From IMG/VR virus record IMGVR_UViG_3300006484_000019, positions 1 through 42,724 of that record: 42,724 bases of DNA. One strand, given 5' to 3'. The notes beneath the pieces are model-generated. The model worked only from the letters and a program-made list of their open reading frames with translations, was not told the DNA's origin and searched no databases. The position numbers were made by a program, and so were the translations under genes. The DNA is from a virus. Below, piece by piece: positions 2,472 to 42,724 of this stretch (positions within the stretch are counted from its first letter, which is position 1; each line of letters begins with the position of its first letter).

Positions 2472-3557
2472 ATGGCAATAATATATTCTTACCCAGTAAC
2501 AGAAGCTAGCATGTCAGACGTTATGGTTGTTTCAGATGTTTCGGCTAATGGTAAGCCGACTAAATCTATATCAGTAAGTGGTATAAAAACAGTTATAGAC
2601 GTTGTGGATAAAATAACAGATATAAACGGGCAAAACGGACAAACTGGAGACATAAAGCTAAGTGGCAGTAATACAATAGATATAGACTTTAATGCGGGAG
2701 CAAATTCGATAACTTTCGATACTATAGCAGTACCAACAATTAATGGTCCAGAATCAAATTTTTTACCGTTGTGGAGTAACACTTCTGGAGTTTTATCATC
2801 GTCTCTTGTCAAACAAGACATAAACGCACCAAGTGTTATTATAACTCAGAATGCTTACTTACAAGTAGATGCACTTTATTCTAACAAGATTCACGATTCA
2901 AATGGCGAATTTGGAAGCGCTAACCAACTGTTGTCAGCTAGTGCAAGCGGTGGACAAGTAGAGTGGATCACACCAACTCCTGGCGACACATATACTATAC
3001 AAGCAGGATCTAAAATCGATGACTCTGTGCCTTTAAACTTAGATGCATCGACTGGGACAGACTCCTCGGTGAAATTAACAGGAGGAACAGGGATTACGCT
3101 AACCGCAACTAGCTCAGCCGAAATAACTATAACTTCTACATCTTCTTTAATAGCTGGTAGTGGTGTTCAAATAGGATCAGGAACTATTCAAACAGATAAC
3201 TTAGCTAACGGTGGTATAATATATTCAGGCGCATCTAATGAATTAGCTGTAGATGTAGGTGCAAGTTCAATTACAGGAGTTTTGGATGTTAATAAGGGCG
3301 GAAGTGGTAATGCTAGTCTAGCAAGGTACAGTGTTTTTATGCAAGACGATAGTCAAACATCTAGTGCTTTTAAATCTTCAACAGATTCTACTAATGGTAT
3401 AGTTATACCTGGAGGAACTTTAAGCCAAAGGCCAGCCGCAGATTCAGAAACTTTAGGTATGATTAGATACAACTCTTCGTCAAAAAACTTTCAAGGAGTA
3501 ATACTTGGAGAAGACACACATACCTGGGTGGATATAACTCCTGCAGTAGAACCATAA
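2472..3557 (+). CDS. Fibre-like structural protein, paralogue 2
   Basis: 361 aa, paralogous to the gene at 1433. It has the same MAIIYSYP start, a comparable anchor region, a DTYTIQ module where the neighbour has STYTIS, and a C-terminus with RPAADSETLGMIRYNSSS followed by a tryptophan. That end is common in phage fibre proteins. It lies 16 bases after its paralogue, so the pair probably arose by tandem duplication followed by divergence of the distal part. A role in host attachment or as a fibre adaptor is inferred; no receptor-binding fold can be recognised by eye. Confidence 0.75.
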   Translation: MAIIYSYPVTEASMSDVMVVSDVSANGKPTKSISVSGIKTVIDVVDKITDINGQNGQTGDIKLSGSNTIDIDFNAGANSITFDTIAVPTINGPESNFLPLWSNTSGVLSSSLVKQDINAPSVIITQNAYLQVDALYSNKIHDSNGEFGSANQLLSASASGGQVEWITPTPGDTYTIQAGSKIDDSVPLNLDASTGTDSSVKLTGGTGITLTATSSAEITITSTSSLIAGSGVQIGSGTIQTDNLANGGIIYSGASNELAVDVGASSITGVLDVNKGGSGNASLARYSVFMQDDSQTSSAFKSSTDSTNGIVIPGGTLSQRPAADSETLGMIRYNSSSKNFQGVILGEDTHTWVDITPAVEP

Positions 3558-3950: not shown

Positions 3951-5489
3951 ATGAGTGATACAATTGTAAAGCATTTAAACTTCGGTGAAGATGCTAGAAA
4001 TAAAATATTCAATGGAATAAATAAATTAACACAAGCCGTTAGCTCCACTCTTGGAGCTAGTGGTAAGTGTGTGATAATGGAAGACAACAGTGGAAATCCT
4101 ATAATAACAAAAGATGGTGTTACTGTTGCTAATTCTATAGTTCTACTAGATCCCGTTGAAAACATGGGAGCTAAATTAATAAAAGAAGCGGCTAGAAAAA
4201 CAGTTAAAGAAGCAGGAGACGGAACAACAACAGCTACTGTAATAGCACATGCTATATTAATGGAAGCTAATAAAAGCAGGGATATAACCTCTAGGGAACT
4301 AAAAGAAGGAATAAATACGGCTGTAGAAAAAGTAGTGCAATATCTTGAAAAAATCTCAACACCAGTTGTTGAAGATAAAATTAAACAAGTAGCTACAATT
4401 TCAGCCAATAATGATAATGATTTAGGACTATTAATAAGTGAGGCTTTTAAAAGTGTAGATAATACGGGGGTTGTATTAATGGAAACACACGAAAGTCCAA
4501 TAACGGAAGTAGAAAGAATAGAGGGTGTTCAATATGAACAAGGTTGTGTTTTAGATCATTTCATTACAAACAAAGAAGATAAAACTTGTGAGCTGCACAA
4601 ACCATTAATTTTAATATTAGATAGTAAAATAGATAATATAAGAAAAATACAAAACGTATTAGAGTATATTATTTCTGAAAAAAAATCTTTATTAATAATA
4701 GGAGAATTAGATCCTCAAGTTACAAGCGCTTTAGCAATGAATAAAGTTAAAGGCAATATAAAGGTAAACGTAATAAATTCTCCAGTTTACGGTATTAATA
4801 GAAAAGAAATGCTTGAAGACTTATCCTTAATAACAGGAGCTACTGTTGTAAATGAAGACTTAGGCGATGATATGGATTTGATAGATTTAAGCCTATTGGG
4901 TTCTTGCAAAAAAACAATAAGTAGTATTTCAGAAACTTTAATACAGGTAGATGAAATGCCAAACGAAGTTAATGATTTAATTAATTTTTTAAGAAAAAAA
5001 ATAATTAAAGAAAAAAACTCTTTGGTTAAAGAAAAGATTGAAAGAAGAATTGCTAGGTTATTAGCTAAAGTTGCAGTAATAAAAGTTGGAGCAAATTCTG
5101 AAATAGAACTTAAAGAAAAAAAAGATAGAGTAGAAGATGCTATTTGTGCTACAAAAGCCGCAATAAAAGAAGGTATAGTGCCAGGGGGTGGCATAGCGTT
5201 GCTTAACGCTGCAACTAATATTAATGCTGACAACTCGTCAGAAGAAATATTGTTTAACGCTATTAAATCACCATATAATACTATATTGAATAACGCTGGT
5301 ATTACTGATTATACCAACTCTAATGTTGAAGGTGAAGGATTAAATGTGGTTACAGGTAAAACGGTAAGTATGGTAAAGTCCGGAATAATAGATCCTTTAC
5401 TAGTAACTAAAAGTGCTCTTAAAAATGCGGCTTCAGTAGCATCTACTATATTATCAACTGATTGTGTAATTAATAACTTAAGAGCATGA
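3951..5489 (+). CDS. groEL: Phage-encoded chaperonin GroEL (Cpn60)
   Basis: 512 aa against about 548 for E. coli GroEL. The ATP-binding signature GDGTTTATV is at residues 89-97, with the catalytic Asp equivalent to D87 at 90. ATISANND at 148-155 and RVEDA at 393-397 (Asp396 matches D398) are present, as are PGGG at 411-414 and SGIIDP near 477. All three domains are therefore represented and the ATPase looks intact. The C-terminus stops at VINNLRA, so the flexible Gly-Gly-Met tail is missing. In the apical domain, positions matching the substrate-binding Y199, Y203 and L234 read Cys, His and Gln, while F204 and L237 are kept. GroEL family proteins fold client proteins in an ATP-driven ring. 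It overlaps groES by ATGA. Family assignment is very secure; the phage-specific client is inferred. Confidence 0.97.
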   Translation: MSDTIVKHLNFGEDARNKIFNGINKLTQAVSSTLGASGKCVIMEDNSGNPIITKDGVTVANSIVLLDPVENMGAKLIKEAARKTVKEAGDGTTTATVIAHAILMEANKSRDITSRELKEGINTAVEKVVQYLEKISTPVVEDKIKQVATISANNDNDLGLLISEAFKSVDNTGVVLMETHESPITEVERIEGVQYEQGCVLDHFITNKEDKTCELHKPLILILDSKIDNIRKIQNVLEYIISEKKSLLIIGELDPQVTSALAMNKVKGNIKVNVINSPVYGINRKEMLEDLSLITGATVVNEDLGDDMDLIDLSLLGSCKKTISSISETLIQVDEMPNEVNDLINFLRKKIIKEKNSLVKEKIERRIARLLAKVAVIKVGANSEIELKEKKDRVEDAICATKAAIKEGIVPGGGIALLNAATNINADNSSEEILFNAIKSPYNTILNNAGITDYTNSNVEGEGLNVVTGKTVSMVKSGIIDPLLVTKSALKNAASVASTILSTDCVINNLRA

Positions 5490-5746
5490 AAGCAGTAGGT
5501 AAATATATAGTAATAAAAGAAACAAAAAACAAAACCACTGAAACAAAAGGTGGTTTAATATTGTCTGATAAATCTAGAGAAGATATAAGATATAAAAAAG
5601 CTGAAGTTTTAATAAAAGGAGAAGAAGTTAATTTTATTAAAAATAAAGATATTATATTTTACGATAGGCATGCTGGTTTTTCTGTTGACATAGACGGAGA
5701 TTCTTTTAAAATAATAAAAGAGCAAGATGTTGTTATAGTTTTATGA
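5486..5746 (+). CDS. groES: Phage-encoded co-chaperonin GroES (Cpn10)
   Basis: 86 aa, slightly shorter than E. coli GroES (97 aa). The N-terminal strand KAVGKYIVIKE is followed by the mobile-loop region at about residues 14-31, with the GroEL-contacting hydrophobic tripeptide in GGLIL (22-26). The second half (KDIIFYDRHAG, then FKIIKEQDVVIVL) matches the GroES barrel strands and C-terminus. The start overlaps the groEL stop (ATGA), and its own stop overlaps the next start in the same way, so translation is probably coupled. The order groEL then groES is the reverse of the usual bacterial operon. It is expected to cap the phage GroEL ring, and could also work with host GroEL. Confidence 0.9.
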   Translation: MKAVGKYIVIKETKNKTTETKGGLILSDKSREDIRYKKAEVLIKGEEVNFIKNKDIIFYDRHAGFSVDIDGDSFKIIKEQDVVIVL

Positions 5747-6180
5747 GAATAACTTCTAAAGAGATAAGAGAGTTAAATATATTAAAGCATTACAGGGTAA
5801 TAAGAAAATGGGCTTGTAAAAACAATAATATAACCGATGCTGACTTAGAGTTGTTGATATACTTAGATAGTATCGGTATGTTTAGTAAGCAAGATTTTAA
5901 ACAGGGCTCTTATTATTACAGCTGGGACAACAGAAGATGGAACAGACTGTTAAAAGAAAACTGGATAATTGTTTGGAGAAAAAGAAATCATACAACTCAA
6001 AAATACCATTTATATAAAGCTTCTTTTAAATGCAAACAACTCATTGCTAAAATATATAGAATAATGATGGGTGAGGATGAAATACCTTTGTCACCAATTT
6101 CAAACAAAATAATGAAAGGTGGTTGTTATTCTGATAAAGTATTAAAAAAAGCAATAATTAATTTTAAAAAAGACAAGTAA
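5743..6180 (+). CDS. Putative winged-helix DNA-binding protein
   Basis: 145 aa. Residues 33-45 (DLELLIYLDSIGM) look like the first helix of a MarR-type winged helix. The segment at 62-105 (WNRLLKENWIIVWRKRNHT, then KYHLYKASFKCKQLI) resembles a recognition helix, a basic beta-hairpin wing and the following dimer helix. This is a pattern match by eye, not a secure family call. The gene starts inside the groES stop (ATGA) and overlaps the following gene by TAATG, so it is translated with the chaperonins and the virion-like protein. A role as a late regulator, or as a DNA-binding virion or packaging factor, is possible. The alternative is a conserved phage protein with no regulatory role. Confidence 0.6.
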   Translation: MRITSKEIRELNILKHYRVIRKWACKNNNITDADLELLIYLDSIGMFSKQDFKQGSYYYSWDNRRWNRLLKENWIIVWRKRNHTTQKYHLYKASFKCKQLIAKIYRIMMGEDEIPLSPISNKIMKGGCYSDKVLKKAIINFKKDK

Positions 6181-7556
6181 TGGCAGAAAATGATTACGAA
6201 AGCCCTAAAAAAATAAAGTCAAGAACTCAAGATGTATTCGCTAACTTAAATACCAGGGTTAATATATTACCAGATGGTAGTCAGCAGCAAATAACCTCTA
6301 ACAACAATATACAGCCAAATACTTCACAGCAAGATCCAACTGGATCAATACCTGGAAATATACCTTCAAACATTAATGACTTAGATGGAACTGTCACAAA
6401 TAAAGGTGGTGGTATTAAACCTATGAATACTAGAAAGCCTATTAACGTGGGTAATTCTTTTGAACAAGACTTTGGCAAAAATCCTATTGATCAGTTTAGG
6501 CAAGCCAAAAAAGAAAGAAAAGCAATGAAGTCGGGTGCTAAAGAAAAGTTTAATGAGAAAAAAGACAATATAAGAAGATCAAGACAAGATGGTCCTGAAA
6601 AACTAACAATTAATAAGCCAGGTGCAGTAAATAAAACTAACTCACGTGATTATTTTGATAACAAAGGTGCACCAGATGGCGGATGGTTCCCGAAAAAAGA
6701 AAGTAATATTCCAACTTTTAGCTTTACAAAAGAAAAAGGAATTTCACAAAAACAAGCTAATTTAGAAACAAAAAAAGCAAGAAAACAATATCGTAAAGAA
6801 AAATCACCTATGAATTATTTAAATCCAAACACTACAGGCGTTCAGGGCAATGCGGATGGCATGCAAGATCCTATGCAAACTCCAGCTCAGCCAAACAGAG
6901 CGGGAAGACCTGTTAATTCCAATGTACTTATAAATGATCCTAACAATTACCAGGATCCGTCTAAAGTGCCAGCTTCACAATCTCAAAATGAGCAAATGTT
7001 CTCTAATATAGCAAGCTCTATGGGGCAACCTAATCCTCCATCAGACCCGATGAATCCTAATATGGATGCTATGGGTGGAGCTGAGAAATCACCATTTAAT
7101 AATATGCATATAGATCCACCTAAAAAACAAAAATCAGGGGAAAAATATAGGCCAGCAAAATCTGCATACCCACTAGCTCAGTCTATAAGTCTTGATAAAA
7201 AAGATACTGTTAGTTACGAAATGAGACCTGGCAAAACTACTATGGAAAATATTGGAACTAAAGCCGATGGAACTCCTAATATGGTTCCTAGCACAACCTA
7301 CAATAAAAATAGAATTTCTAATAAAGATTATGCTAATAGGATGGGTGATAGAGTAGATAGAGCTAAAACTCCATTAAAAAAAAACTGGATAAAGGGAGCT
7401 ATTAAAAAACCAGGTCAACTTAGAAAAGATTTAGGTGTTGCAGAAGGAGAGAAAATACCAAAAAGTAAATTAAATGCCGCTGCTGATGGAGAGTACGGTA
7501 AAAAAACACAACAAAGAGCTAATTTAGCTAAAACTTTAAGTAAATTTAAAAAATAA
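6180..7556 (+). CDS. Low-complexity virion-like protein with SPMN/SPFN motifs and basic C-terminal module
   Basis: 458 aa, mostly disordered by composition: rich in Asn, Pro, Gln, Lys and Met, with no membrane segment. Motifs KSPMNY (208-213) and KSPFNNM (303-309) echo those of the proteins at 174 and 8809. The last 57 residues from about 402 (NWIKGAIKKPGQLRKDLG, then KIPKSKL and RANLAKTLSKF) form a compact basic module. It resembles C-terminal modules I associate with other large-virus structural proteins (KPG-L-LG-IP-RA-LA-TL pattern). The start overlaps the preceding stop as TAATG. Likely a virion or assembly protein; function unknown. Confidence 0.75.
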   Translation: MAENDYESPKKIKSRTQDVFANLNTRVNILPDGSQQQITSNNNIQPNTSQQDPTGSIPGNIPSNINDLDGTVTNKGGGIKPMNTRKPINVGNSFEQDFGKNPIDQFRQAKKERKAMKSGAKEKFNEKKDNIRRSRQDGPEKLTINKPGAVNKTNSRDYFDNKGAPDGGWFPKKESNIPTFSFTKEKGISQKQANLETKKARKQYRKEKSPMNYLNPNTTGVQGNADGMQDPMQTPAQPNRAGRPVNSNVLINDPNNYQDPSKVPASQSQNEQMFSNIASSMGQPNPPSDPMNPNMDAMGGAEKSPFNNMHIDPPKKQKSGEKYRPAKSAYPLAQSISLDKKDTVSYEMRPGKTTMENIGTKADGTPNMVPSTTYNKNRISNKDYANRMGDRVDRAKTPLKKNWIKGAIKKPGQLRKDLGVAEGEKIPKSKLNAAADGEYGKKTQQRANLAKTLSKFKK

Positions 7557-8640: not shown

Positions 8641-8816
8641 TGAGTTTTAATTTTAATATAAAATCTAAAGGTCTTGGAGATAGTATCCATAATTTTACAA
8701 CTTCAACTGGAATAAAAGCTGTTGTTGATAAAGTTAGTGAAGTTACAGGCAAGGACTGTGGCTGTGCGGGTAGACGAGAAAAATTAAATAAAAAATTTCC
8801 TTATAAAAATGTATAA
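8640..8816 (+). CDS. Small protein with C-terminal CGC motif
   Basis: 58 aa. Its ATG overlaps the preceding stop (TAATG) and its end overlaps the next gene by 8 bases. An N-terminal half that may form an amphipathic helix (GLGDSIHNFTTSTGIKAVVD) leads to KDCGCAGRREKLN at 38-50 and ends KKFPYKNV. Short proteins ending in this kind of CGC, arginine, LN, FPY pattern recur, as I recall, in marine phages, but I know of no function. The CGC could be a metal or redox site. Genetic coupling to lysis and metallopeptidase genes suggests a late role. Confidence 0.65.
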   Translation: MSFNFNIKSKGLGDSIHNFTTSTGIKAVVDKVSEVTGKDCGCAGRREKLNKKFPYKNV

Positions 8817-10227
8817 ACAAAAAAGAAATCCTTTTAATTCTCCGATTGTTAAAGTCGATATGGAAGATGGTGTTTTAGGTAAAGCCAATAAAGATGGTAC
8901 TATACATATAAATAAAGACGTTGTTGATCCAAAGCAAATTAAAGACATAGTTAAACATGAGTCTGTGCATATTGATCAAATGCAAAGAGGTGATTTAGAT
9001 TATAATGACAATAAAGTTATTTGGAAAGGAAAAGAATATTCCAGAGCCAAAATGAACGAGGGAGCTAAAAACTTACCATGGGAAAAAGAAGCTTATAAAA
9101 AAGCAGGTGATAGTCCATTGAATAAAACAGACTATGGTAAAAAACCAAAATCGAAAAAAAATAAAAATAAAAGCTTTTCTAAAAGAAAATATACAAAAGG
9201 ACCTAATTTAATAGATAAAATAAAAAATATAACTCCTACAAAATCTAAAAAAACAACAAGCAAAAAACCATCGTCAACTCTTCCATCAAATAAACCAGAA
9301 TTAGAAAAGCAAGAAACTCAAGTGCCAAAGATACAAGCTACAGTAAATAAAAATGCTTCAAAAGCAAGCACTGTACTTCCAACAGCTACAGTAACTCCGC
9401 CGCCAAGACGTAGCATGTCATCTTCTGATTTTACTTATGATAATACTACGGGCAAAAGAACTTACAATGTTGCTAGTACTGGTAATATAATATCGGGACA
9501 ACTTAGGGGTGGCAATGTGCAAACAGAAAATTATTTAAATAATAATAAAACAAGAAATATTCAAGGCCAAACTAATTTATCGCAAGTTGGTGATGCACTA
9601 TGGAAACAATATGAAAAAGACTATGGTCCTAATGTAGGTGGTTATAAAAATATTTTTGATTTTAAAAGAGATTTAAATAAAGACGTAGCTAATTACCAAG
9701 AACAAAGAGATGTTGCTGCTACTTCTTATGATTATTTTAATGACTTAGCACAAGTGCCAGGTAATCCTAATATGAGACAGTTCACTACTGATTCAGGATC
9801 GCAATACCAAGTTCAATGGCAAAGCCAAGACGATAAAAACCCTGTAGCAGGCTATCAATACTCTCAAGTAGACCCTACAACTGGAGAATTTTCTAAGTTT
9901 TTTAATCCTAGCGATGCTCAATTTAGTAGTAAAAGTAGGTCAGAAATAACAAACACTAGAAACAGGATGTTTGAAGATCAATGGAAAAATAGTCAGGAGA
10001 ATAATGATTTTAATAATAAATGGGGTGGCTCTAGAAATAGTACTCCTTCATCAGAAGGAACTGGTATAGGTTATGATCCAAATATGGAAAGCTGGTATGG
10101 TAAAGGCAGTAACGCAATGAATAATTTTCGTGGTCGTTTTTATCAAAACGATGCTCCAACAGATGGTTCAAGTACATTTAGGGTGGGCAACAAGGCTTAT
10201 AGATCTAACTCAGATAGGGTTGGTTAA
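8809..10227 (+). CDS. HExxH zinc-metallopeptidase-like protein with long disordered C-terminal region
   Basis: 472 aa. Residues 1-100 form a small domain with HESVH at 50-54 (His50, Glu51, His54: the zinc-binding HExxH signature) and a likely third ligand in PWEKEAY (Glu92 or Glu94). This layout fits a minimal gluzincin-type peptidase. Right after the domain comes DSPLNKTDYG (101-110), the same SPLN motif found in the proteins at 174 and 6180, and NPFNSP occurs at residues 7-12. Residues 110-472 are Lys-rich, then Asn/Ser/Gln/Thr-rich and probably disordered, with Tyr- and Trp-containing segments. It may be a virion-associated protease acting on maturation or on the cell envelope. Catalysis is inferred from the motif only. 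Confidence 0.75.
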   Translation: MYKQKRNPFNSPIVKVDMEDGVLGKANKDGTIHINKDVVDPKQIKDIVKHESVHIDQMQRGDLDYNDNKVIWKGKEYSRAKMNEGAKNLPWEKEAYKKAGDSPLNKTDYGKKPKSKKNKNKSFSKRKYTKGPNLIDKIKNITPTKSKKTTSKKPSSTLPSNKPELEKQETQVPKIQATVNKNASKASTVLPTATVTPPPRRSMSSSDFTYDNTTGKRTYNVASTGNIISGQLRGGNVQTENYLNNNKTRNIQGQTNLSQVGDALWKQYEKDYGPNVGGYKNIFDFKRDLNKDVANYQEQRDVAATSYDYFNDLAQVPGNPNMRQFTTDSGSQYQVQWQSQDDKNPVAGYQYSQVDPTTGEFSKFFNPSDAQFSSKSRSEITNTRNRMFEDQWKNSQENNDFNNKWGGSRNSTPSSEGTGIGYDPNMESWYGKGSNAMNNFRGRFYQNDAPTDGSSTFRVGNKAYRSNSDRVG

Positions 10228-15768: not shown

Positions 15769-15993
15769 ATGTCTACTATTAGAAAAATTAGTATTGGTTC
15801 TGATTATAAAAATGATGCTATGCACTACTCCGTAGGCCAAGAGGTTTACGGAGGTCATATCATATGTAATATACTTAGTGATGATGATCAAAAAGAATAT
15901 TCTATTTACATTAAAAAATCAAACGAAATATTACCTTGGAAAAAATTTAACAGCAATATGGCTGTTGCTGTAGAGTATGATTTAAATTATTAA
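15769..15993 (+). CDS. Small conserved-type phage protein of unknown function
   Basis: 74 aa, beta-rich, soluble. Visible landmarks are ISIGSDYKNDAMHYSVGQEV near the start, a repeated Ile-Tyr pattern (EYSIYIKK), WKKF and a final VEYDLNY. I recall similar short proteins with this pattern in marine podoviruses, without a known role. It ends on the start of the next gene (TAATG overlap) and follows the coiled-coil gene closely, so it belongs to the run leading to terminase. No motif allows a functional call. Confidence 0.7.
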   Translation: MSTIRKISIGSDYKNDAMHYSVGQEVYGGHIICNILSDDDQKEYSIYIKKSNEILPWKKFNSNMAVAVEYDLNY

Positions 15994-16586
15994 TGAAAAG
16001 TCTATATGATTTTATTGTATCTCCATTAGAAGGTAGATATAATAATACTAAAAAAATCGGTGGAAAAACTTTAATAATAAATACAAAAATAGAAACTTTT
16101 AAAAATGTAAGTAAAGAGGCTGTAGTAATAGAAGTTCCAGCTGCTTACAGAACTAAGATTAAAAAAGGAGATAAAGTTTTTGTACATCATAATATTTTTA
16201 GAAGATTTTATGATATTAAAGGTAAAGAAAAAAACAGTAGATCATATTTTAAAGATAATATGTATTTTTGTGATCCTATGCAGATATACATGTATAATAA
16301 TAAATCTCATTTAAATTATTGCTTTGTCAGTCCAATTAAGAATATTGACAAATTAAGCAACAATAAAGAGCAAACCCAACTTGGTATATTAAAATATACT
16401 AATAACACCTTAGAAGCGCTAGGAATAACCCCTGGTACACTCGTTACCTTCACTCCAGACTCTGAGTTTGAGTTTGTAGTGAATGGTGAACGACTTTATT
16501 GTATGAAATCAAATAATATAGCTCTAACCCATGAATATAAAGGAAACGAAAAAGAAAATAATCCAAGCTGGGCAAAAAGCAGTTGA
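15993..16586 (+). CDS. Unknown protein, possible GroES-like barrel
   Basis: 197 aa, soluble. Two halves are visible. Residues 20-75 run from a first strand (KTLIINTKIETFKNV) to IKKGDKVFVHHNIFRRFYDI, which resembles the 'GD-V-V' turn of a Cpn10-like barrel. The second half (LGILKYTNNTLEALGITPG, then LVTFTPDSEFEFVVNGERLY) repeats a similar strand-turn pattern and ends NNPSW. The strict GroES mobile loop is not evident, so a chaperone role is speculative. It lies in the terminase-proximal gene run. Alternatives: an adaptor or virion protein with a small beta-barrel. Confidence 0.55.
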   Translation: MKSLYDFIVSPLEGRYNNTKKIGGKTLIINTKIETFKNVSKEAVVIEVPAAYRTKIKKGDKVFVHHNIFRRFYDIKGKEKNSRSYFKDNMYFCDPMQIYMYNNKSHLNYCFVSPIKNIDKLSNNKEQTQLGILKYTNNTLEALGITPGTLVTFTPDSEFEFVVNGERLYCMKSNNIALTHEYKGNEKENNPSWAKSS

Positions 16587-16806
16587 AGAATTAATTAAAG
16601 TAGCACAAGAAAAGATCGTTGACTCAGGAGATGATATCTCAGCTGACAGACTTAAAAATGCTGCTGCAACAAAAAAATTAGCCATATTTGATGCGTTTGA
16701 AATTCTAACTCGCATACAAGATGAAGAGGATATTTTAAATGAAAAACCAAAAGAAATTAAAGATCAAAAATCTTTTAAAGGTTTTGCAGAGGGGAGAAGC
16801 AAATGA
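16531..16806 (+). CDS. Probable terminase small subunit
   Basis: 91 aa, helical and charged, with no recognisable helix-turn-helix by eye. Position is the main evidence: it ends on the start of the terminase large subunit (overlap 16803-16806), the usual place of the small subunit. The amphipathic helices (KAVEELIKVAQEKIVD, then ADRLKNAAATKKLAIFDAFEIL) fit an oligomerising small protein. Its ATG lies 56 bases inside the preceding gene, an unusually long overlap. No later in-frame ATG exists, so the overlap is probably genuine. Small terminase subunits recognise packaging sites and regulate the motor. Alternative: a different small packaging-linked protein. Confidence 0.55.
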   Translation: MNIKETKKKIIQAGQKAVEELIKVAQEKIVDSGDDISADRLKNAAATKKLAIFDAFEILTRIQDEEDILNEKPKEIKDQKSFKGFAEGRSK

Positions 16807-19076
16807 GCAAATCATTTTTAGATATTCCTTTTGAGTTAGAAGAAAATAAACATGGATATAATCAAACTCTTTATAAAAATATTTTAGACGTTGTTAATCC
16901 TAAAATATTAAAGAAACAAAATCGTTTGAAAAAATGGGAGTATGGTTATAACTCTGATTATGATTTTATAGTAATAAGTAAAACTGGACAAATTGGACAA
17001 ATCATTGAAATACAGAATCTCAGGATTGCTTTACCAGCAACAAATGAACCGTTTAAACGAAGCAAAGAAAAAAAGGAACAATACTGGGTTAAAGCCGAAT
17101 ATCCAAAAGAGCTGAGTAGAATTAAAACAAGATTTGATTGGCAAGAATATCCTGTTGATTTTAAAGAAAAGTGGTTTGATTATATAGATGAAGAATTTAG
17201 AAAAAGAGACGAAGGCTATTGGTTTTATAATAAAGGAGTTGCTACTTATATTACTGGTACTCATTACATGTACTTGCAATGGTCAAAGATTGATATTGGA
17301 GCACCAGATTACAGAGAAGCAAATAGATTATTCTATATATTTTGGGAAGCATGCAAGGCAGATAACAGATGTTACGGGATGTGCTATCTTAAAAACAGAA
17401 GGTCTGGATTTTCATTTATGTCCTCAGCAGAGCTTGTTAATCAAGCGACGATATCCAGTGATGCCAGATTCGGTATATTATCTAAATCTGGATCAGATGC
17501 TAAAAAAATGTTTACAGATAAAGTTGTACCAATATCCGTTAACTATCCGTTTTTCTTCAAACCGATCCAAGACGGTATGGATCGTCCTAAGACAGAACTG
17601 GCGTATAGGGTTCCGGCTTCAAAACTTACTAGAAGAAAGCTTGAGAGTAATGAGCAATTAGAAGATCTTGACGGGCTTGATACAACTATTGATTGGAAAA
17701 ACACAGGCGACAACTCTTACGATGGTGAGAAATTAAAAATATTAGCACACGACGAAAGTGGAAAATGGGAAAGACCAGACAACATATTAAACAATTGGCG
17801 AGTTACAAAAACAACATTAAGACTAGGAAGAAAAATAGTAGGCAAGTGTATGATGGGCTCAACTTCAAACGCATTAGATAAAGGTGGAAGTAATTTCAAA
17901 AAATTATACAACAATTCAGACGTTAAAGAAAGAAATAAAAACGGACAAACTTCTAGCGGGCTCTATGCTTTGTTCATACCTATGGAATGGAACTACGAAG
18001 GATACATGGATACTTACGGATTACCTGTCTTCATTACACCAGAAGATAAAGTCAAAGGAGCAGATGGTATTCCTATTACAATTGGAGTTATCGAGCACTG
18101 GGAAAACGAAGTCGAAGGCTTAAAAGAAGATCAAGACAGCTTAAATGAATTTTATCGTCAATTTCCAAGAACTGAAAAACATGCATTTAGAGACGAGACT
18201 AAATCTAGTTTATTTAATTTAACTAAAATTTATGAACAAATAGATTACAATGAAGACGTTGACAATGACAAGAAAATAGTACGTGGTAATTTCCAGTGGG
18301 AAAACGGAGTAAAAGATACTAGGGTATTACTAACGCCTAATAAAAACGGAAGATTTAATATATCTTGGATACCAAATGCTCAAATACAAAATAATGTAAT
18401 ATTAAAAAATGGAAACAAATATCCAGGCAACGAACATATTGGAGCTTTTGGTTGTGATTCTTATGATATTAGCGGTACTGTTGATGGTCGCGGTAGTAAA
18501 GGATCGCTACATGGATTAACAAAGTTTTCTATGGAGCAAGCACCTGCTCATCATTTTTTTTTAGAATACATATCTAGACCTCAAACAGCTGAGATATTTT
18601 TTGAAGATGTTTTAATGGCTTTAGTTTTTTATGGTATGCCACTTCTTTGTGAAAATAATAAACCTAGATTATTATACTACTTAAAGCGTAGAGGTTACAG
18701 AGGTTTTTCAATTAATCGTCCTGATAAAATTTGGAACAAACTTTCTGTAACTGAGAAAGAAATAGGTGGAATACCTAATTCAAGTGAAGATATTAAGCAA
18801 GCGCATGCTGCTGCTATAGAGGCTTACATAGAAAACTATGTTGGCAGAGTGGACGAAGAATATGGTGATGTTTATCATCAAAAAACACTAGAGGATTGGT
18901 CGCAATTTGATATAAATAACAGAACAAAGCACGATGCTTCTATTAGTTCTGGTTTAGCTATAATGGCCTGTAACAAAAATAAATACCGGCCCGTGTCAGT
19001 TAGATCTACAAAAAATATTAATTTAGGAATTAAACAATTTGATAATAAAGGATCCTTTTCACAAATAATAAAATAA
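16803..19076 (+). CDS. terL: Terminase large subunit
   Basis: 757 aa, within the range of large terminases. A deviant Walker A, KNRRSGFS, is at residues 197-204, very like the KSARVGYS of lambda gpA where the first lysine binds ATP. Walker B with catalytic acid is KILAHDES (Asp317, Glu318). A coupling-type GSTSN is at 352-356. The C-terminal nuclease begins with IGAFGCDSYDISG, Asp552 being the likely first metal ligand; a later acidic site is probable in KHDASIS near 720. The N-terminal 190 residues form an additional domain rich in Trp and Tyr. Terminases cut concatemeric DNA and pump it through the portal, encoded immediately downstream. The two genes abut with no gap. Confidence 0.93.
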   Translation: MSKSFLDIPFELEENKHGYNQTLYKNILDVVNPKILKKQNRLKKWEYGYNSDYDFIVISKTGQIGQIIEIQNLRIALPATNEPFKRSKEKKEQYWVKAEYPKELSRIKTRFDWQEYPVDFKEKWFDYIDEEFRKRDEGYWFYNKGVATYITGTHYMYLQWSKIDIGAPDYREANRLFYIFWEACKADNRCYGMCYLKNRRSGFSFMSSAELVNQATISSDARFGILSKSGSDAKKMFTDKVVPISVNYPFFFKPIQDGMDRPKTELAYRVPASKLTRRKLESNEQLEDLDGLDTTIDWKNTGDNSYDGEKLKILAHDESGKWERPDNILNNWRVTKTTLRLGRKIVGKCMMGSTSNALDKGGSNFKKLYNNSDVKERNKNGQTSSGLYALFIPMEWNYEGYMDTYGLPVFITPEDKVKGADGIPITIGVIEHWENEVEGLKEDQDSLNEFYRQFPRTEKHAFRDETKSSLFNLTKIYEQIDYNEDVDNDKKIVRGNFQWENGVKDTRVLLTPNKNGRFNISWIPNAQIQNNVILKNGNKYPGNEHIGAFGCDSYDISGTVDGRGSKGSLHGLTKFSMEQAPAHHFFLEYISRPQTAEIFFEDVLMALVFYGMPLLCENNKPRLLYYLKRRGYRGFSINRPDKIWNKLSVTEKEIGGIPNSSEDIKQAHAAAIEAYIENYVGRVDEEYGDVYHQKTLEDWSQFDINNRTKHDASISSGLAIMACNKNKYRPVSVRSTKNINLGIKQFDNKGSFSQIIK

Positions 19077-22740: not shown

Positions 22741-24234
22741 ATGAGTTTTAATAATACAGGATCATTCCCGGCTCAAATTGTACCTTCACAAAAGAAATTA
22801 GCTTTAGAAACTAATTACTTAGATTTTACAGGTACAACTACTGGTAATGATAATAACTTTGCTCAACAATACCTACCGGAATTGTATGAAGCAGAGGTTG
22901 AAAGATACGGAAACAGGACTTTGTCTGGTTTCTTGAGAATGGTAGGCGCTGAAATGCCTATGACATCTGATCAAGTTGTTTGGTCTGAGCAAAATAGATT
23001 ACACATTGCTTATGATGATGCTACTGCTTCAGGCGGTGCTGGTGCTCAAAAAGTAAAAGTAAACAACATTGGTACTGGAGTTGGTAAAACAGATTCTTTA
23101 AATGTTGCTATTAGAACAGGTCAAACTATTTTAGTTTCTGATAAAGCTACTGGGTTAATAACTCAAAAGGCTTTAGTAACTAAATCACCATTTGACGCTG
23201 GTTCAACTCTAACGGATGAAATAGAAGTTGTAACTTATGATAAGACTACTTGGTCTACTGGGTTATCAAGTGCTGCTGTTAAGATCTTTGTATATGGATC
23301 TGACTTTGGTAAAGGTACACAGTCTATGGTAGGTGCTATTCAGCCAAACTTTACACAATTTAGTAACAATCCTATTATTCTTAAAGATCACTTTGAGATT
23401 AATGGTTCTGATACTGCGCAAATTGGTTGGGTTGAAGTCGCTACTGAAGATGGAACATCTGGTTACTTATGGTACTTGAAATCTGAGTCTGAAACAAGAT
23501 TAAGATTTGATGACTATTTAGAAATGATGATGGTTGAGTCAGAAAAATCAGGTCACAAGTTTAACTATGAGGGTACTACTGTAACTTCTGGTATTGAAGT
23601 TTCTGGTTCTGAAGGTTTATTTGCCGCTATAGAAGATAGAGGTAATGTATACTCTGGTTTTGCTGGAGCTGCTTCTCCTGGAGCTGGTGCTTTAGGTGAT
23701 TTTGATGCTATACTACAACAATTAGACAAGCAAGGTGCTATTGAAGAGAACATGTTATTTTTATCAAGATCTACGGCTCTTGATTTTGATGATATGATTG
23801 CTGCTCAAGCTGGTGGTGGATTTGGTTCTACTGCTTCTGCTTCTTATGGTCTTTTTGATAACGAGCAAGAAATGGCTTTAAACTTTGGTTTTTCAGGTTT
23901 TAGAAGAGGTTCTTATGACTTCTACAAAACTGATTGGAAATACTTAAACGATGCTACTACTAGAGGAATGTCTAACGCTATTGATGGTGTTATGATTCCA
24001 GCTGGTACTACAACTGTTTATGACCAATCAATGGGATCAAACATTAGACGTCCTTTCTTACATGTACGTTATAGAGCTTCTGAAACTGAAGATAGAAGAT
24101 ATAAGTCTTGGATCACTGGATCTGTAGGTGGAGCTTATACTTCAGGATTAGATGCTATGGAAGTGCACTTTCTATCTGAAAGATGTTTAGTTACACAAGC
24201 TGCTAATAACTTCGTGTTATTCAAAGGAGCTTAA
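22741..24234 (+). CDS. Major capsid protein
   Basis: 497 aa, placed after portal and the scaffold-like gene. N-terminal residues (FPAQIVPSQKKLALETNYLD) are followed by an E-loop-like and spine-helix-like pattern (QQYLPELYEAEVERYGNRTL, SGFLRMVGAEMPM). Later segments are GSDTAQIGWVEVATEDGTSG and a C-terminal region RPFLHVRYRASETEDRRYKS. Codon use differs from its neighbours: Ile is mostly ATT rather than ATA, with many GGT, GCT and GTT codons, as expected for the most abundant phage protein. The HK97 fold is inferred from family context; no match was computed. Surface loops rich in Gly/Ala suggest exposed insertions. Confidence 0.85.
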   Translation: MSFNNTGSFPAQIVPSQKKLALETNYLDFTGTTTGNDNNFAQQYLPELYEAEVERYGNRTLSGFLRMVGAEMPMTSDQVVWSEQNRLHIAYDDATASGGAGAQKVKVNNIGTGVGKTDSLNVAIRTGQTILVSDKATGLITQKALVTKSPFDAGSTLTDEIEVVTYDKTTWSTGLSSAAVKIFVYGSDFGKGTQSMVGAIQPNFTQFSNNPIILKDHFEINGSDTAQIGWVEVATEDGTSGYLWYLKSESETRLRFDDYLEMMMVESEKSGHKFNYEGTTVTSGIEVSGSEGLFAAIEDRGNVYSGFAGAASPGAGALGDFDAILQQLDKQGAIEENMLFLSRSTALDFDDMIAAQAGGGFGSTASASYGLFDNEQEMALNFGFSGFRRGSYDFYKTDWKYLNDATTRGMSNAIDGVMIPAGTTTVYDQSMGSNIRRPFLHVRYRASETEDRRYKSWITGSVGGAYTSGLDAMEVHFLSERCLVTQAANNFVLFKGA

Positions 24235-37446: not shown

Positions 37447-40400
37447 ATGAATAAATATACTTATCAAGGTAGCTCCGTACAGGAAGATTTATTACAAGAA
37501 AAAGCAACTAGTTTAGGTTTAACTCTAGATCAATATTTAGCAGATCAAGGTAGTGAAATAGAAGTTTCTACTGATTTAAGCGAAATAGAAGAAGATTCAG
37601 AGCCTATTATAGATACTGAAGAAGTTATAGAAAAGAGTAATAAAGAGAAAAGACTTGACAAAGGTATTAAAAAAATAGATAAAAAAATAAATAAAGTAAC
37701 TAATGCTCAAATAAGTTTAGATGATATAAAAGATCAAAAATTAAATGAAGTTGGTGAAATAAAAAATGCAGATAAAACTTTATCTAATCTTTCAGACACT
37801 AAATTAAACAAAATTAGAGTTGCAAAAGAAAAGAGAGAATTAGAAAAGCAGTCTAGATTACTTGAAAAAACTAGTATAAACCCTGATGATGTTTCAAACG
37901 AAGGAAAGTATGTAGTTAAAACTCATTTAGGTGAAGATGGTAAAGAACACAAGTCTTATTATCCAAAAGACACTTGGGAAAAATACTTTACACCAGGTAA
38001 TGATTTGTATAATAAAAATGATATAGTAAAGCAAGCTATTAAATTAACTAATTCTAGCTCTCCTTCTTTAGAAGATTATTTAGAAGCATTAAACAAGAGT
38101 AGTAACAAAGCTGGATCTAGCGTTACTTATTCTTACTTAAAAGCAGGTAAAGATGAAGGAGTGTTAGACACTTTTGAAGTCGTGGCTGATGGAAGAAATG
38201 ATGCTATAAATGAAATGGGTTTTAGTAATTATTTTGATGAACTATTTAAAAAGAATAATTCATGGTTAGCTAAAAATGAAAATATTGTAGAAAAAGAATT
38301 ACAACAAGTTTTACCTCAACAGTTTGATGGCTCATTGTTTAATGTAGAACAAACCACTGATGATATAACTGTTAATGAGGTTTTAATAACTGATTCTAGA
38401 GGCAACGAGTTTGTGTTAAAAGTTGGTAAAGATCAAGAGCTATTTGGAGGTGATGGTTACCCTCAGTACGAAAGCTTTAAAAATTTTATATCAAGTGCTG
38501 TACAACCTCAAGATGAAAATAAAGCTAAAATAGATGATGTAACACTTTTAAAAGACTGGAGAAAAAGAACAGCTGGATTAAGGTTGTTTTTAAACAACTT
38601 AGAAAATACACCTGTAGATAAAGGTGGAATAGGTTTTGACAAAAGACAGTCTAATTACTTAGCCGTTATAGAAAACGCTTCATATACAGAGCTTTTTGGT
38701 TATGATCCTACTGTAGAACAAGAAGAATCTAATCCTTTATCTGATGCTGAAAATCCATTAATAAATTATCAGGGTGGAGAAGTGGATCTAGGCTCGGAGA
38801 CTACTAATGCAACTAGTGGTTTAGATCAAAGTTTAATACAAGGTGGTGTTATAATACCAGAAGATGAAGAATTTGGAAATAGTGAGCAAATAGATAGTAA
38901 TTTAAAAGTATTATCAAATACAGAGAAAAGTTTAAAAGCTTCTTATGAAAGACAAGGCCTAGAACTTACTGATGAAATTATTTTTTCTACAGCTAAACTA
39001 GCTATAATAAATAAACAAAAAGAAAGATACTACAAGGCTAATGCTGAGAAGTGGATAGAAGAGCCTAGAGGACTTGAAAAAGAAAAACTAAGACAAGGAT
39101 CTATAATAGGAGCTGTTGCCTTAGAAGACGCTGAAAATCAATTATTATTAGATGCCGCTACTTTTGAAAAAAACTTAGCAGAAGCTGAATACAATAAAGA
39201 TTTTTTAAGTTACACAGTAGATGTTAACAATAGAGCAGTTGCTGGTTTTTTATATGGTGATGATGATCAAAAAATTAACGAGGACCTAAGTATAGATATG
39301 ACCGGTAATATGCAGTCTTATTCTATAGCAAGAGATGATTTAGGTTTTACTACGGAAGATGGTTACATAAAGAAACTTGTTGATGGTGAAATTAAAATAC
39401 AGTTTATACCTCAAGGAACTCAAATATCTGAAACGTATGAAGATGGTCAACCAGTAGAAAGTATACCTACCTGGATGGTTACTAAGTTTAATCAAAACAT
39501 CGTAAAGTTACAAGAGAGCGGGAAAAACGTAAGTATAGCTTATAAAAACTATAGTGATGAGCTTTTAGAAATACCTACATTTAATCAAAAAATGGAAGTT
39601 TGGTTAAATAACTATAATGACACTCAAGAATTTTTTGTAAAACTAGGTATTGGCGGTTTAAAAACAGCTAAAAACATAGTTTACACAGCTGGGTCATTAG
39701 CTTCATATGTAAATCCTATGTATTGGTCTATGTATGGATTAACTGGAAGAGATCCTATGCAGGGTGTTATGGATGCTAACGCTACTATAACTAAATGGCT
39801 AGATGATGAATTAAATGAATATAATTTTGATCAAGTCTCTTTTGAGGATATATTTGCTCCTGGAACATCTGGCTGGAAAAAATTAGAAAACTTTGGTGCT
39901 TGGATGATGGGTATGACAGCGGAAACATTACCTATAGTAGCTGCTATGATATTTAGCGGTGGAAGTGCTTCTTATGGTCAAATAATATCTTCTAGTGTTG
40001 CTGGACTTAGCTCTATGGGTGGAAAGCTTAGTGAGATGGATGTTAATAATTTTATGGTTCAAAACGAAATTGACGAAATAAGATCAAGAAAAGACTTAAC
40101 TCAAGAAGAAAAAGAAAAAGAATTAATAGGCTTACAAGAGAGAAAAATAAATAAAGGAGTTTATATAGCTAAAGGCACAGCTTATGGCCTTATTGAAGGT
40201 AGTTTAGCGTATGTAACTACTGCTGGTCAAATATCTAATGCTTATTCAGTATTTAGAGGTGATAAGGCAATACTAGGTGAACTAAATACTAGTATAGGTA
40301 TGTTTCTAAAGAAGAAAGGTCCTGAGTGGCTTAAAGCTGCTAACACTGAAGGTTTAGGTGAGGTTGGAGTTACTTTTGGAACTAACCTAGTAGATGGAAG

Positions 40401-42724
40401 AAATCCTTTAGAAGGCATTGTTGAGTCTTATGTAGGTGGTTTTGCTTTGGGAGGTGTTTTTGAAGGAATCCCTATATCTCATGCAATTATGACTAGCAAT
40501 TTTGCTACAAATGCAGAAATACAATCTATTAATGATACACAAGGTGAAATAATATCTTTATCTAAAAGAAAAGATGCCTTAATTAAAAAATTAAAAATAC
40601 TAGATTTAATTCCCAATGTCAATATGGCTGATGGTTTAAATAAGATTAAAAACAAAGTTGAACTAACTAAAGCTATAAATGATATTGATCAACAAATAAC
40701 TGATCAAGCTGGTTTGTTAGAAACTAAACAAATTGAAGTTCAAGACAGATTACAAGACGAGGGTATAGGAAAATCAGCTGGTATAATACATGCTGAAAAC
40801 GTTAAAAAGCTTTCTGATTTACGAAATGAAGCTTCACAGTTAGTTTTAGACAATCCTACTATGGATAAAACAACAAATAAAAAGCTTACTGAATTAAATA
40901 AAAGATATAAAAATATTCAAAATATTACTAATAAACTAAAAAGTAAATCTTTATTTGGCCACAAGTGGTTAGCTATGAAGGGTAAAGCTTTTTGGAATAC
41001 TAACACAAGAAATGAAGTAAACCGCATAGAGGCTCAGGCTATTGAAAATATAGTTAAAGAAAAAGGACCTATGGTTGACGGACCTACAGCTAGAGAAATA
41101 CAAGCTGAGTCAATGAAAATTTTAGATGGCAGAGATTACGACGCTAATGTTAGCAAAGCTAAGTCTATGGCGGAAGAAGGTGGTTGGCAGTATTTTAACT
41201 TTGATAATAATAAAGACGCAGCTGATCAATTGCCAGATTTAATAGCTAGAAATTTACAAAATTTAGAAGCTGAAGGCGTAGATGTTGACTCTGAGATAAA
41301 CGATGGAGAAGGTCAAACATATAGAGAATATATAGAACAACAAATAACAGAAGCTTTAGATGGTGTTAAAGATGGCACAAGCAATGGCTTTTACGATCCG
41401 ATAACTAACACTCAATACACTTTTAGAGAAAACGCAATAAATAATCAAAAACCAGGAGTTCCTTTACACGAAACTGGACATGCCGCTTCTCAAGAATTAA
41501 TTAGAAATAATCCTAGTGCTTTTGACGAAGCTGGTCAATTGATTGTTGATTTTATGGAATCAAAATATAATGACATTTTTATCAGAATGCAGGTAGAAGG
41601 TACAAACAAACTCCGTAGCTCTGATGGAAGTTGGGATTTTGAAGAGGTTTTTGCTTCTTATATAGAAGAAATAGCTGCTGGTAATATTGATCCTAAAGCA
41701 GATAAAGCTTTTACAGCATTTTTTGCTAAAACATTTAACGATGGATTACTTGAAGCTAGTAATGGTAGTTATGAAATTGAATTTAAAGGGGTTAATGATA
41801 TAACTCAATATTTGCTAGGATTAGGTAAAGATATAGTCAATGGTAAAATAAACCAAAGAAAAATAGATAAAGCTAGAGAAACAAAAGTTATAAATATAAA
41901 TCAAACTCCTACTACAGGCTCTAAAATTGCAGCTTCTAAAAGCGTTAAAAAAAGCTCTTCAAAAACAGTTAAAGCAGATTTAATAGCTGAAAATAAATCT
42001 TTATTAAAAAACAGACCTAAAAATTTTAAAGAAAAAATTGCAGACAATGTTAGAAAAATAAAAGACTTAGCTAGTGGCAGCGGTAGTGCGCCTAGTTCTC
42101 GAATGGATGGAGATAATGAACCTACTAGTGTTAAAGCTAAAAAAGCTAAAGAATCTATAAATAGTAAGTTTGATGAAAATAAAAAAGGCTGGAAACAAAA
42201 TAGAAAAGAAAATCCAGCTGCAGATAAATTATTTGGCCTCATACAGCCTGACTTAGACGGTATGATAAAAAATAAAGCAGAAAACTTTTTTACTCAAGAT
42301 GGTAATGTAGTTGATTTAACTAAAAACTTAGATTTAAGAGAATTGCAACAGTCAGTAAAAACACTTTTGCTTGCTGACATTAGAGGTTTTGATCCTACTA
42401 ATACAAGTTTATATGGATATATAAATGGAAGATTAAAGAATAGAATTGGAGATGTTTTAAAAAGTGGTGAAGTATTTAATGATTTAAGCACTAAAGATAT
42501 AGATAATTTAGGATCTTCTGAAACAGCAGAAATTAACAAAACTAAAACTACAGTCGAGACTGTTCCAGATGTAAACTTAAGAGAATCATTAAATATAGAT
42601 AGAGGTTCGCCTTTAGGTGAGTTTGTGTTAGATAATGTTAAAAAAGTATTGAGTACTAAAATGCCTGAGTTTAAGTATGTAAGAAAAAACAAAGGAGGCA
42701 AAAGAACTGATGTTACTTTAGAAC
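37447..42724 (+). CDS. Giant virion protein with zincin motif (runs off the window)
   Basis: Open from ATG 37447 to the window edge with no stop: at least 1759 residues. Residues 1-250 are charged and helical. Hydrophobic Gly/Ala-rich segments lie near 735-760 (LGIGGLKTAKNIVYTAGSLA), 819-859 (WMMGMTAETLPIVAAMIFSG) and 995-1015 (YVGGFALGGVFEGIPISHAI). A zinc-protease motif LHETGHAA is at 1340-1347 (His1341, Glu1342, His1345), with a likely third ligand in WDFEEVFASYIEEIA (Glu1399 or Glu1400). Near the edge, FDPTNTSLYGYINGRLKNRI starts at 1648. Size, hydrophobic segments and position after two ejection-like genes fit a T7 gp16-like ejected protein. Giant virion proteins with peptidase-like domains also occur in crAss-like phages. 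Function inferred. Confidence 0.85.
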   Translation, partial: MNKYTYQGSSVQEDLLQEKATSLGLTLDQYLADQGSEIEVSTDLSEIEEDSEPIIDTEEVIEKSNKEKRLDKGIKKIDKKINKVTNAQISLDDIKDQKLNEVGEIKNADKTLSNLSDTKLNKIRVAKEKRELEKQSRLLEKTSINPDDVSNEGKYVVKTHLGEDGKEHKSYYPKDTWEKYFTPGNDLYNKNDIVKQAIKLTNSSSPSLEDYLEALNKSSNKAGSSVTYSYLKAGKDEGVLDTFEVVADGRNDAINEMGFSNYFDELFKKNNSWLAKNENIVEKELQQVLPQQFDGSLFNVEQTTDDITVNEVLITDSRGNEFVLKVGKDQELFGGDGYPQYESFKNFISSAVQPQDENKAKIDDVTLLKDWRKRTAGLRLFLNNLENTPVDKGGIGFDKRQSNYLAVIENASYTELFGYDPTVEQEESNPLSDAENPLINYQGGEVDLGSETTNATSGLDQSLIQGGVIIPEDEEFGNSEQIDSNLKVLSNTEKSLKASYERQGLELTDEIIFSTAKLAIINKQKERYYKANAEKWIEEPRGLEKEKLRQGSIIGAVALEDAENQLLLDAATFEKNLAEAEYNKDFLSYTVDVNNRAVAGFLYGDDDQKINEDLSIDMTGNMQSYSIARDDLGFTTEDGYIKKLVDGEIKIQFIPQGTQISETYEDGQPVESIPTWMVTKFNQNIVKLQESGKNVSIAYKNYSDELLEIPTFNQKMEVWLNNYNDTQEFFVKLGIGGLKTAKNIVYTAGSLASYVNPMYWSMYGLTGRDPMQGVMDANATITKWLDDELNEYNFDQVSFEDIFAPGTSGWKKLENFGAWMMGMTAETLPIVAAMIFSGGSASYGQIISSSVAGLSSMGGKLSEMDVNNFMVQNEIDEIRSRKDLTQEEKEKELIGLQERKINKGVYIAKGTAYGLIEGSLAYVTTAGQISNAYSVFRGDKAILGELNTSIGMFLKKKGPEWLKAANTEGLGEVGVTFGTNLVDGRNPLEGIVESYVGGFALGGVFEGIPISHAIMTSNFATNAEIQSINDTQGEIISLSKRKDALIKKLKILDLIPNVNMADGLNKIKNKVELTKAINDIDQQITDQAGLLETKQIEVQDRLQDEGIGKSAGIIHAENVKKLSDLRNEASQLVLDNPTMDKTTNKKLTELNKRYKNIQNITNKLKSKSLFGHKWLAMKGKAFWNTNTRNEVNRIEAQAIENIVKEKGPMVDGPTAREIQAESMKILDGRDYDANVSKAKSMAEEGGWQYFNFDNNKDAADQLPDLIARNLQNLEAEGVDVDSEINDGEGQTYREYIEQQITEALDGVKDGTSNGFYDPITNTQYTFRENAINNQKPGVPLHETGHAASQELIRNNPSAFDEAGQLIVDFMESKYNDIFIRMQVEGTNKLRSSDGSWDFEEVFASYIEEIAAGNIDPKADKAFTAFFAKTFNDGLLEASNGSYEIEFKGVNDITQYLLGLGKDIVNGKINQRKIDKARETKVININQTPTTGSKIAASKSVKKSSSKTVKADLIAENKSLLKNRPKNFKEKIADNVRKIKDLASGSGSAPSSRMDGDNEPTSVKAKKAKESINSKFDENKKGWKQNRKENPAADKLFGLIQPDLDGMIKNKAENFFTQDGNVVDLTKNLDLRELQQSVKTLLLADIRGFDPTNTSLYGYINGRLKNRIGDVLKSGEVFNDLSTKDIDNLGSSETAEINKTKTTVETVPDVNLRESLNIDRGSPLGEFVLDNVKKVLSTKMPEFKYVRKNKGGKRTDVTLE

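What the first reader, a model, noticed from the sequence alone, without database searches (positions are those of the whole stretch)
3951..5746. Complete GroEL-GroES pair in a phage, in reversed order, with a changed client-binding face
Seen: an intact ATPase chaperonin (GDGTTT, RVEDA, PGGG) and a GroES with a GGLIL mobile loop overlap by ATGA, with groEL first. The Gly-Gly-Met tail is absent, and positions equivalent to GroEL Y199, Y203 and L234 read Cys, His and Gln. Known: most phages use host GroEL, sometimes with only a GroES replacement such as T4 gp31; some giant and marine phages carry a GroEL. Inference: this pair is adapted to a narrow phage client such as the capsid or fibre proteins encoded around it.
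Basis: partly seen in the sequence, partly recalled or inferred. Interest (0 to 1): 0.75.

Follow-up and report, generated by a model that had tools for sequence, protein, structure and literature searches.

The report
Phage chaperonin with plastid-style double lid
This virus of marine Flavobacteria-like bacteria carries its own protein-folding chamber (GroEL) and lid (GroES), which is known for this phage group, but it also carries a second, two-in-one lid protein of a kind described so far only in plastids (chloroplasts and the apicoplast), always placed beside its DNA-packaging gene.

Summary
groEL (3951-5489) and groES (5486-5746) are intact, overlap by ATGA, and have the stated residues. 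As reported it is not new: 284 phage records match this GroEL, and Nishimura et al. 2017 described GroEL in this very group (phi38:1-like Bacteroidetes phages). The groEL-first order is shared by nearly all close relatives. Y199C is private to the window and its near twin, but Y203H/E, L234Q and V264M are fixed in the clade. A narrow phage client is neither shown nor excluded.

ORF 15993-16586, directly upstream of the large terminase, is a tandem double-GroES protein. AlphaFold pLDDT is 86; the best PDB fold match is plastid Cpn20. The C half is a Cpn10 domain by profile, the N half by fold. The family is large, lies next to TerL in 216 of 217 loci, and in 21 of 21 long or complete genomes co-occurs with a single-domain GroES (20 of 21 also with GroEL).

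I propose a three-part folding machine for virion assembly, whose lid may mix single and double subunits as in chloroplasts. Tandem fold: well supported. Co-chaperonin activity: likely. Mixed lid: speculative.

The parts
3951..5489 (+). groEL: group I chaperonin, 512 aa, ATPase residues intact, no GGM tail, altered client/GroES-binding face
   Evidence: Pfam PF00118 194 bits, phrog_5725 E=9e-135, TIGR02348 458 bits (below its equivalog cut-off of 582); residue alignment
5486..5746 (+). groES: single-domain co-chaperonin, 86 aa, mobile loop TETKGGLIL; start overlaps groEL stop (ATGA)
   Evidence: Pfam PF00166 35.4 bits; alignment A2
15993..16586 (+). T: tandem double-Cpn10 (Cpn20-like) protein, 197 aa; N domain with mobile-loop-like segment, C domain with shortened loop
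   Evidence: phrog_13932 'co-chaperonin GroES' E=4e-23; AF2 pLDDT 85.8; Foldseek best PDB hit 7ekq_R Cpn20 E=1.6e-4; C-domain HHalign to GroES 97%, E=1e-10; N-domain model alone hits only Cpn10/GroES in the top 23
15993..16310 (+). T, N-terminal Cpn10-fold domain (residues 1-106)
   Evidence: AF2 of the domain alone pLDDT 88.2, Foldseek top hits GroES/Cpn10, best E=5e-3, prob 1.00; weak in-register profile match to GroES
16302..16541 (+). T, C-terminal Cpn10 domain (residues ~104-183)
   Evidence: HHalign; Pfam Cpn10 over cut-off for this half in phi38:1 and Calle_3 (24.1 vs 21.1 bits); 19 of 46 family members hit Cpn10 at E<=0.1
16531..16806 (+). small 91-aa ORF between T and TerL (possible small terminase, unproven)
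   Evidence: ORF list and position; inference
16803..19076 (+). terminase large subunit; T lies directly upstream of TerL in 216 of 217 family loci
   Evidence: phrog_6681 E=2e-164; adjacency count
22741..24234 (+). virion structural protein, probable major capsid protein: the most plausible client
   Evidence: phrog_13704 E=5e-87; client role is inference

Best explanation
The phage encodes a three-component chaperonin system used to fold its own late proteins (most plausibly the capsid protein and other virion proteins). GroEL is an ATP-driven group I chaperonin that has drifted far from the host's. A single-domain GroES is encoded directly behind it with an overlapping start. A tandem Cpn10 protein, made from the packaging/morphogenesis block, acts as a second co-chaperonin. 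The lids dock through their mobile loops (GroES GGLIL; N domain of the tandem protein G-x-x-LI-x-N) onto apical helices H and I, whose surface is retuned (Y203H/E, L234Q, V264M). Shown: gene integrity, ATPase residues, GroES loop, predicted tandem Cpn10 fold, synteny and co-occurrence. Inferred: expression, ring assembly, co-chaperonin activity of the tandem protein, and the clients.
For: GroEL/GroES families and catalytic residues. Tandem fold of 15993-16586: AF2, Foldseek to plastid Cpn20 over ~200 columns, each half tested separately (C half by profile; N half by fold and weak in-register profile match). In Callevirus-like relatives the C half keeps a recognisable GroES loop (IGSIIVPNSG), which ties the family to true co-chaperonins. 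In 21 genomes that are isolates or contigs over 56 kb and carry the tandem gene, all 21 carry a single GroES and 20 carry GroEL. The exception is a circular 72.8-kb genome that keeps both co-chaperonins without GroEL, as expected if they can cap a host chaperonin. The tandem gene adjoins TerL in 216/217 loci.
Against: The window's tandem protein by itself does not reach Pfam Cpn10 significance and has no sequence match to solved Cpn10s. Its C domain has lost most of the mobile loop. Its invariant position beside the packaging gene is also compatible with a structural or packaging role. One long fragment carries the tandem gene with no GroEL in the expected place (G018). No expression data or biochemistry exist.
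Confidence: 0.6

Rival explanations
1. Mixed lid: three tandem subunits (6 barrels) plus one single GroES (1 barrel) make one seven-barrel cap, as Cpn10/Cpn20 hetero-oligomers do in chloroplasts.
For: Single and tandem genes co-occur in all 21 long genomes, even where GroEL is missing. Chloroplast Cpn10 and Cpn20 form functional hetero-oligomers. Three N-domain loops plus one GroES loop would give four loops, and a paper cited in PMC4242682 puts the minimum of functional GroES subunits at four of seven.
Against: The two genes lie in separate blocks about 10 kb apart, on opposite strands in elemo. No contact or oligomer evidence. Each could act alone on different clients or at different times.
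Confidence: 0.3
2. The tandem protein is not a lid but a packaging or head-completion protein that reuses the GroES fold.
For: It is always directly upstream of TerL (216/217), has lost the C-domain loop in most lineages, and is present in contigs where GroEL was not found.
Against: Callevirus-type members keep GroES-like loops in both halves; it co-occurs with single GroES and GroEL; phi38:1 gp089 carries no 'structural protein' label, unlike several of its neighbours.
Confidence: 0.25
3. GroEL and GroES are passengers that raise general folding capacity for the infected cell and have no special phage client.
For: ATPase core fully kept, so general folding is possible. Other phages, such as Vibrio phages, carry host-like GroEL.
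Against: Clade-fixed changes on the client/lid face and a long separate branch suggest specialisation, though not necessarily of client.
Confidence: 0.2
4. One reading: narrow client face for capsid or fibre proteins.
For: Y203H/E, L234Q and V264M are clade-fixed.
Against: The same residues bind GroES; position 199 stays mostly hydrophobic; F204, L237 and N265 are kept. Sequence cannot separate client from lid adaptation.
Confidence: 0.3

Closest known systems
Elemovirus / Callevirus (Flavobacterium phage elemo, Cellulophaga phi38:1, Calle) and related marine Bacteroidetes phages ('group 2' of Nishimura 2017)
   Same: Same TerL-portal-structural gene block; all carry GroEL, single GroES and the ~180-200 aa 'cpn10' gene before TerL; GroEL in this group already reported
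   Different: GroEL only about 38-40% identical to the window; Callevirus has groES before groEL; tandem nature not noted in the annotations seen
Chloroplast/apicoplast Cpn20 (two Cpn10 domains head to tail) with Cpn10
   Same: Two Cpn10 folds in one chain (best fold match) alongside a single-domain partner
   Different: No detectable sequence relation by phmmer; C-domain loop lost in window type; no evidence of plastid ancestry
E. coli GroEL-GroES
   Same: Full domain architecture, ATP site, GroES mobile loop
   Different: Gene order reversed; no GGM tail; apical face and inter-ring residues (R452, E461, S463, V464) not conserved
T4 gp31 and phage EL chaperonin gp146
   Same: Phage-encoded chaperonin parts
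   Different: gp31 is a lid only (own knowledge); the phage EL chaperonin does not interact with E. coli GroES and seems to work without encapsulation (PMC7185714); here both lid types and GroEL are present

Membership tests
Group I chaperonin (GroEL/Cpn60) | Full-length Cpn60 architecture | tested here: met
   PF00118 positions 1-487 of 490; phrog_5725
Group I chaperonin (GroEL/Cpn60) | NCBI GroEL equivalog cut-off (TIGR02348, 582 bits) | tested here: not met
   457.7 bits; the broader subfamily models NF009487 and NF000592 are passed
Group I chaperonin (GroEL/Cpn60) | ATP-site residues D52, D87, T89-91, D398, GGG414-416, D495 | tested here: met
   kept in the window and 43/43 clade members
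Group I chaperonin (GroEL/Cpn60) | Seven-fold ring(s) and ATP-driven folding | not testable with these tools
   inter-ring contact residues are not conserved; single or double ring is open
GroES/Cpn10 | Cpn10 domain above Pfam cut-off and mobile loop | tested here: met
   35.4 vs 21.1 bits; TETKGGLIL
GroES/Cpn10 | Heptameric lid that binds GroEL | not testable with these tools
   needs purified protein
Tandem Cpn10 (Cpn20 type), for 15993-16586 | Two Cpn10-fold domains in one chain | tested here: met
   AF2 plus Foldseek for whole and N half; profile for C half
Tandem Cpn10 (Cpn20 type), for 15993-16586 | Mobile loop in both domains | tested here: not met
   N loop present but atypical, C loop shortened in the window type; present in Callevirus-like relatives
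Tandem Cpn10 (Cpn20 type), for 15993-16586 | Common descent with plastid Cpn20 | tested here: inconclusive
   No sequence match to any solved Cpn20; fold similarity only. It may work like Cpn20 without being one
Tandem Cpn10 (Cpn20 type), for 15993-16586 | Co-chaperonin activity | not testable with these tools
   needs purified protein

The most novel reading that the evidence does not exclude
A phage independently evolved the chloroplast solution to lid symmetry: a heptameric GroEL cap built from tandem double-Cpn10 subunits plus one single GroES. In most lineages the C-domain loops were dropped, so that only the minimum of about four mobile loops engages a retuned phage GroEL.
Probability: 0.25. 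Interest if true: 0.8.

Novelty: new variant of a known kind. Interest (0 to 1): 0.55.

Why it matters
A review describes tandem double-Cpn10 co-chaperonins as chloroplast-specific, and how even-numbered barrels cap a seven-fold ring is a discussed puzzle. A large phage family (521 and 540 confirmed relatives in two database scans, possibly overlapping), seated beside the packaging motor and accompanied by single GroES and usually GroEL, gives a second natural experiment on that question. The isolated phages (elemo, phi38:1, Calle) make it directly testable. It also shows that a gene often annotated simply as cpn10 or GroES in these phages has a fused architecture.

Tried and rejected
First genome-contig scan with the window GroEL alone found nothing; repeated with alignment A3. 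Sequence search of the tandem protein against PDB: no relevant hit. Direct N-half versus C-half profile comparison: no signal, so internal duplication is supported by fold only. N-half versus GroES by HHalign: weak (26%); HMMER weak but in register and better than reversed controls. Recent host acquisition of GroEL: not supported, since no cellular sequence exceeds 42% and there is no nesting in the tree; ancient origin from Flavobacteriaceae not rejected (p-AU 0.066). Deep phage relationships (elemo, ctfjg026, Calle, crAss) are unreliable because of long branches. Marine et al. 2017 (virioplankton chaperonins) is not held and could not be read.

Full report
1. What is in the window. The window is a 42.7-kb linear virus record with a canonical tailed-phage block: TerL, portal, virion structural proteins, and an S74-chaperone tail fibre.

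2. The GroEL. It covers the whole Cpn60 model and keeps the ATP-site residues checked (D52, D87, T89-91, D398, GGG414-416, D495) in the window and in all 43 distinct members of its clade examined. It lacks the GGM tail, as does every clade tail printed. On the face that binds clients and GroES, three changes are clade-fixed relative to 79 cellular GroELs: Y203 to H (31) or E (12), L234 to Q (43/43), and V264 to M (43/43). F204, L237 and N265 are kept (F204 in 42 of 43). Inter-ring contact residues (R452, E461, S463, V464) are not kept, so single-ring behaviour is possible but untested. Because helices H and I bind both client and lid (for the lid), the sequence cannot say which partner drove the changes.

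3. Origin. The best cellular GroEL is 42% identical. In trees the clade is monophyletic with full support and on a long branch. A tree placing it with Flavobacteriaceae is not rejected (p-AU 0.066), so an ancient host origin stays open, but it is not a recent host operon.

4. Gene order and prior knowledge. The groEL-then-groES order with overlapping start/stop is found in every complete clade locus, and groEL-first also in elemo, ctfjg026 and Panino; Callevirus, immuto and DAC20 have groES first. Nishimura et al. 2017 (PMC5332604) already reported GroEL homologues in 36 environmental genomes of the phi38:1 group, and isolates carry the pair. The finding as worded is therefore known biology in a new sequence.

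5. The missed gene. ORF 15993-16586 hits phrog_13932 'co-chaperonin GroES' over the N half of that 200-position profile, while the window's canonical GroES hits the C half of the same profile. It has 521 confirmed relatives in one viral scan and 540 in another with a freshwater member as query (the two sets may overlap). AlphaFold with a 46-sequence alignment gives pLDDT 85.8 and pTM 0.79. The best PDB fold match is Chlamydomonas Cpn20 (7ekq_R, E=1.6e-4, 205 columns; named Cpn20); the other leading matches are Cpn10/GroES chains. Tested by halves: the C half matches GroES profiles at 97% / 1e-10 and passes the Pfam Cpn10 cut-off in phi38:1 and Calle_3. The N half, modelled alone (pLDDT 88.2), has Cpn10/GroES chains as its first 23 PDB matches, followed mainly by alcohol dehydrogenases, which share the GroES-like fold (individual E-values are modest, best 5e-3), and a weak but in-register profile match in which elemo-type N domains read SGLVLN/NGLILN at the mobile loop. 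So the tandem fold is well supported; for the N half it rests mainly on structure prediction.

6. Loops. Window-type tandem proteins keep a loop-like segment in the N domain and have a shortened loop in the C domain. In Callevirus-like L248/L249 the C domain still reads IGSIIVPNSG/IGSIIVQNSG, a clear GroES-like loop.

7. Co-occurrence. Among 21 genomes that carry the tandem gene and are isolates or contigs over 56 kb (phi38:1, Calle_3, elemo, ctfjg026, Panino; G006, G010, G011, G012, G053, G055, G057, G059-G064, G067, G068, G071), all 21 have a single-domain GroES and 20 have GroEL. The exception, G071, is a circular 72,780-bp genome (32-bp end overlap) with no GroEL by two searches and a local profile scan; it retains both lids. 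G018 has 12.5 kb upstream of the tandem gene without GroEL or GroES, but is a fragment. The tandem gene lies directly upstream of TerL in 216 of 217 loci.

8. Mechanism. Best supported: a three-component chaperonin system for late phage proteins. The chloroplast precedent (PMC5780408; PMC4242682) shows that tandem and single Cpn10 proteins form functional hetero-oligomers. The text of PMC4242682 cites earlier work that four of seven functional GroES subunits suffice to bind GroEL. That arithmetic is suggestive, not evidence. A packaging or structural role for the tandem protein remains the main rival.

9. Novelty. In the held literature I found no report of a tandem co-chaperonin in a phage; one key paper (Marine 2017) was not available. 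Existing annotations call the gene 'cpn10', 'co-chaperonin GroES' or hypothetical. I rate this a new variant of a known kind.

Noticed in passing
174-1421, 6180-7556, 8809-10227: Three separate ORFs share a short motif SP[LMFA]N (in 174-1421 as SPMNMYGK-like repeats); 6 SP[LMFA]N matches in all window proteins against 0.6 expected on shuffling. Possibly a docking or interaction motif.
   Followed up: partly
8809-10227 and 37447-42723: HExxH motifs typical of zinc metallopeptidases (HESVH; HETGH), the second inside a giant virion-type protein running off the contig end.
   Followed up: no
1433-2455 and 2472-3557: Two adjacent ORFs begin with the same MAIIYSYP sequence: likely paralogous fibre-like proteins.
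   Followed up: no
G071 (loci L364-L367; IMGVR_UViG_3300045119_000200): Complete circular Callevirus-like genome without GroEL but with single GroES and a tandem co-chaperonin that has loops in both halves; a natural test of capping host GroEL.
   Followed up: partly
L003, L004, L005, L006, L008, L097 (tandem-gene C-termini): Several relatives carry a roughly 30-residue Cys/Gly-rich C-terminal extension (for example CRYGGGCICGPTQERGC) after the Cpn10 domain.
   Followed up: no
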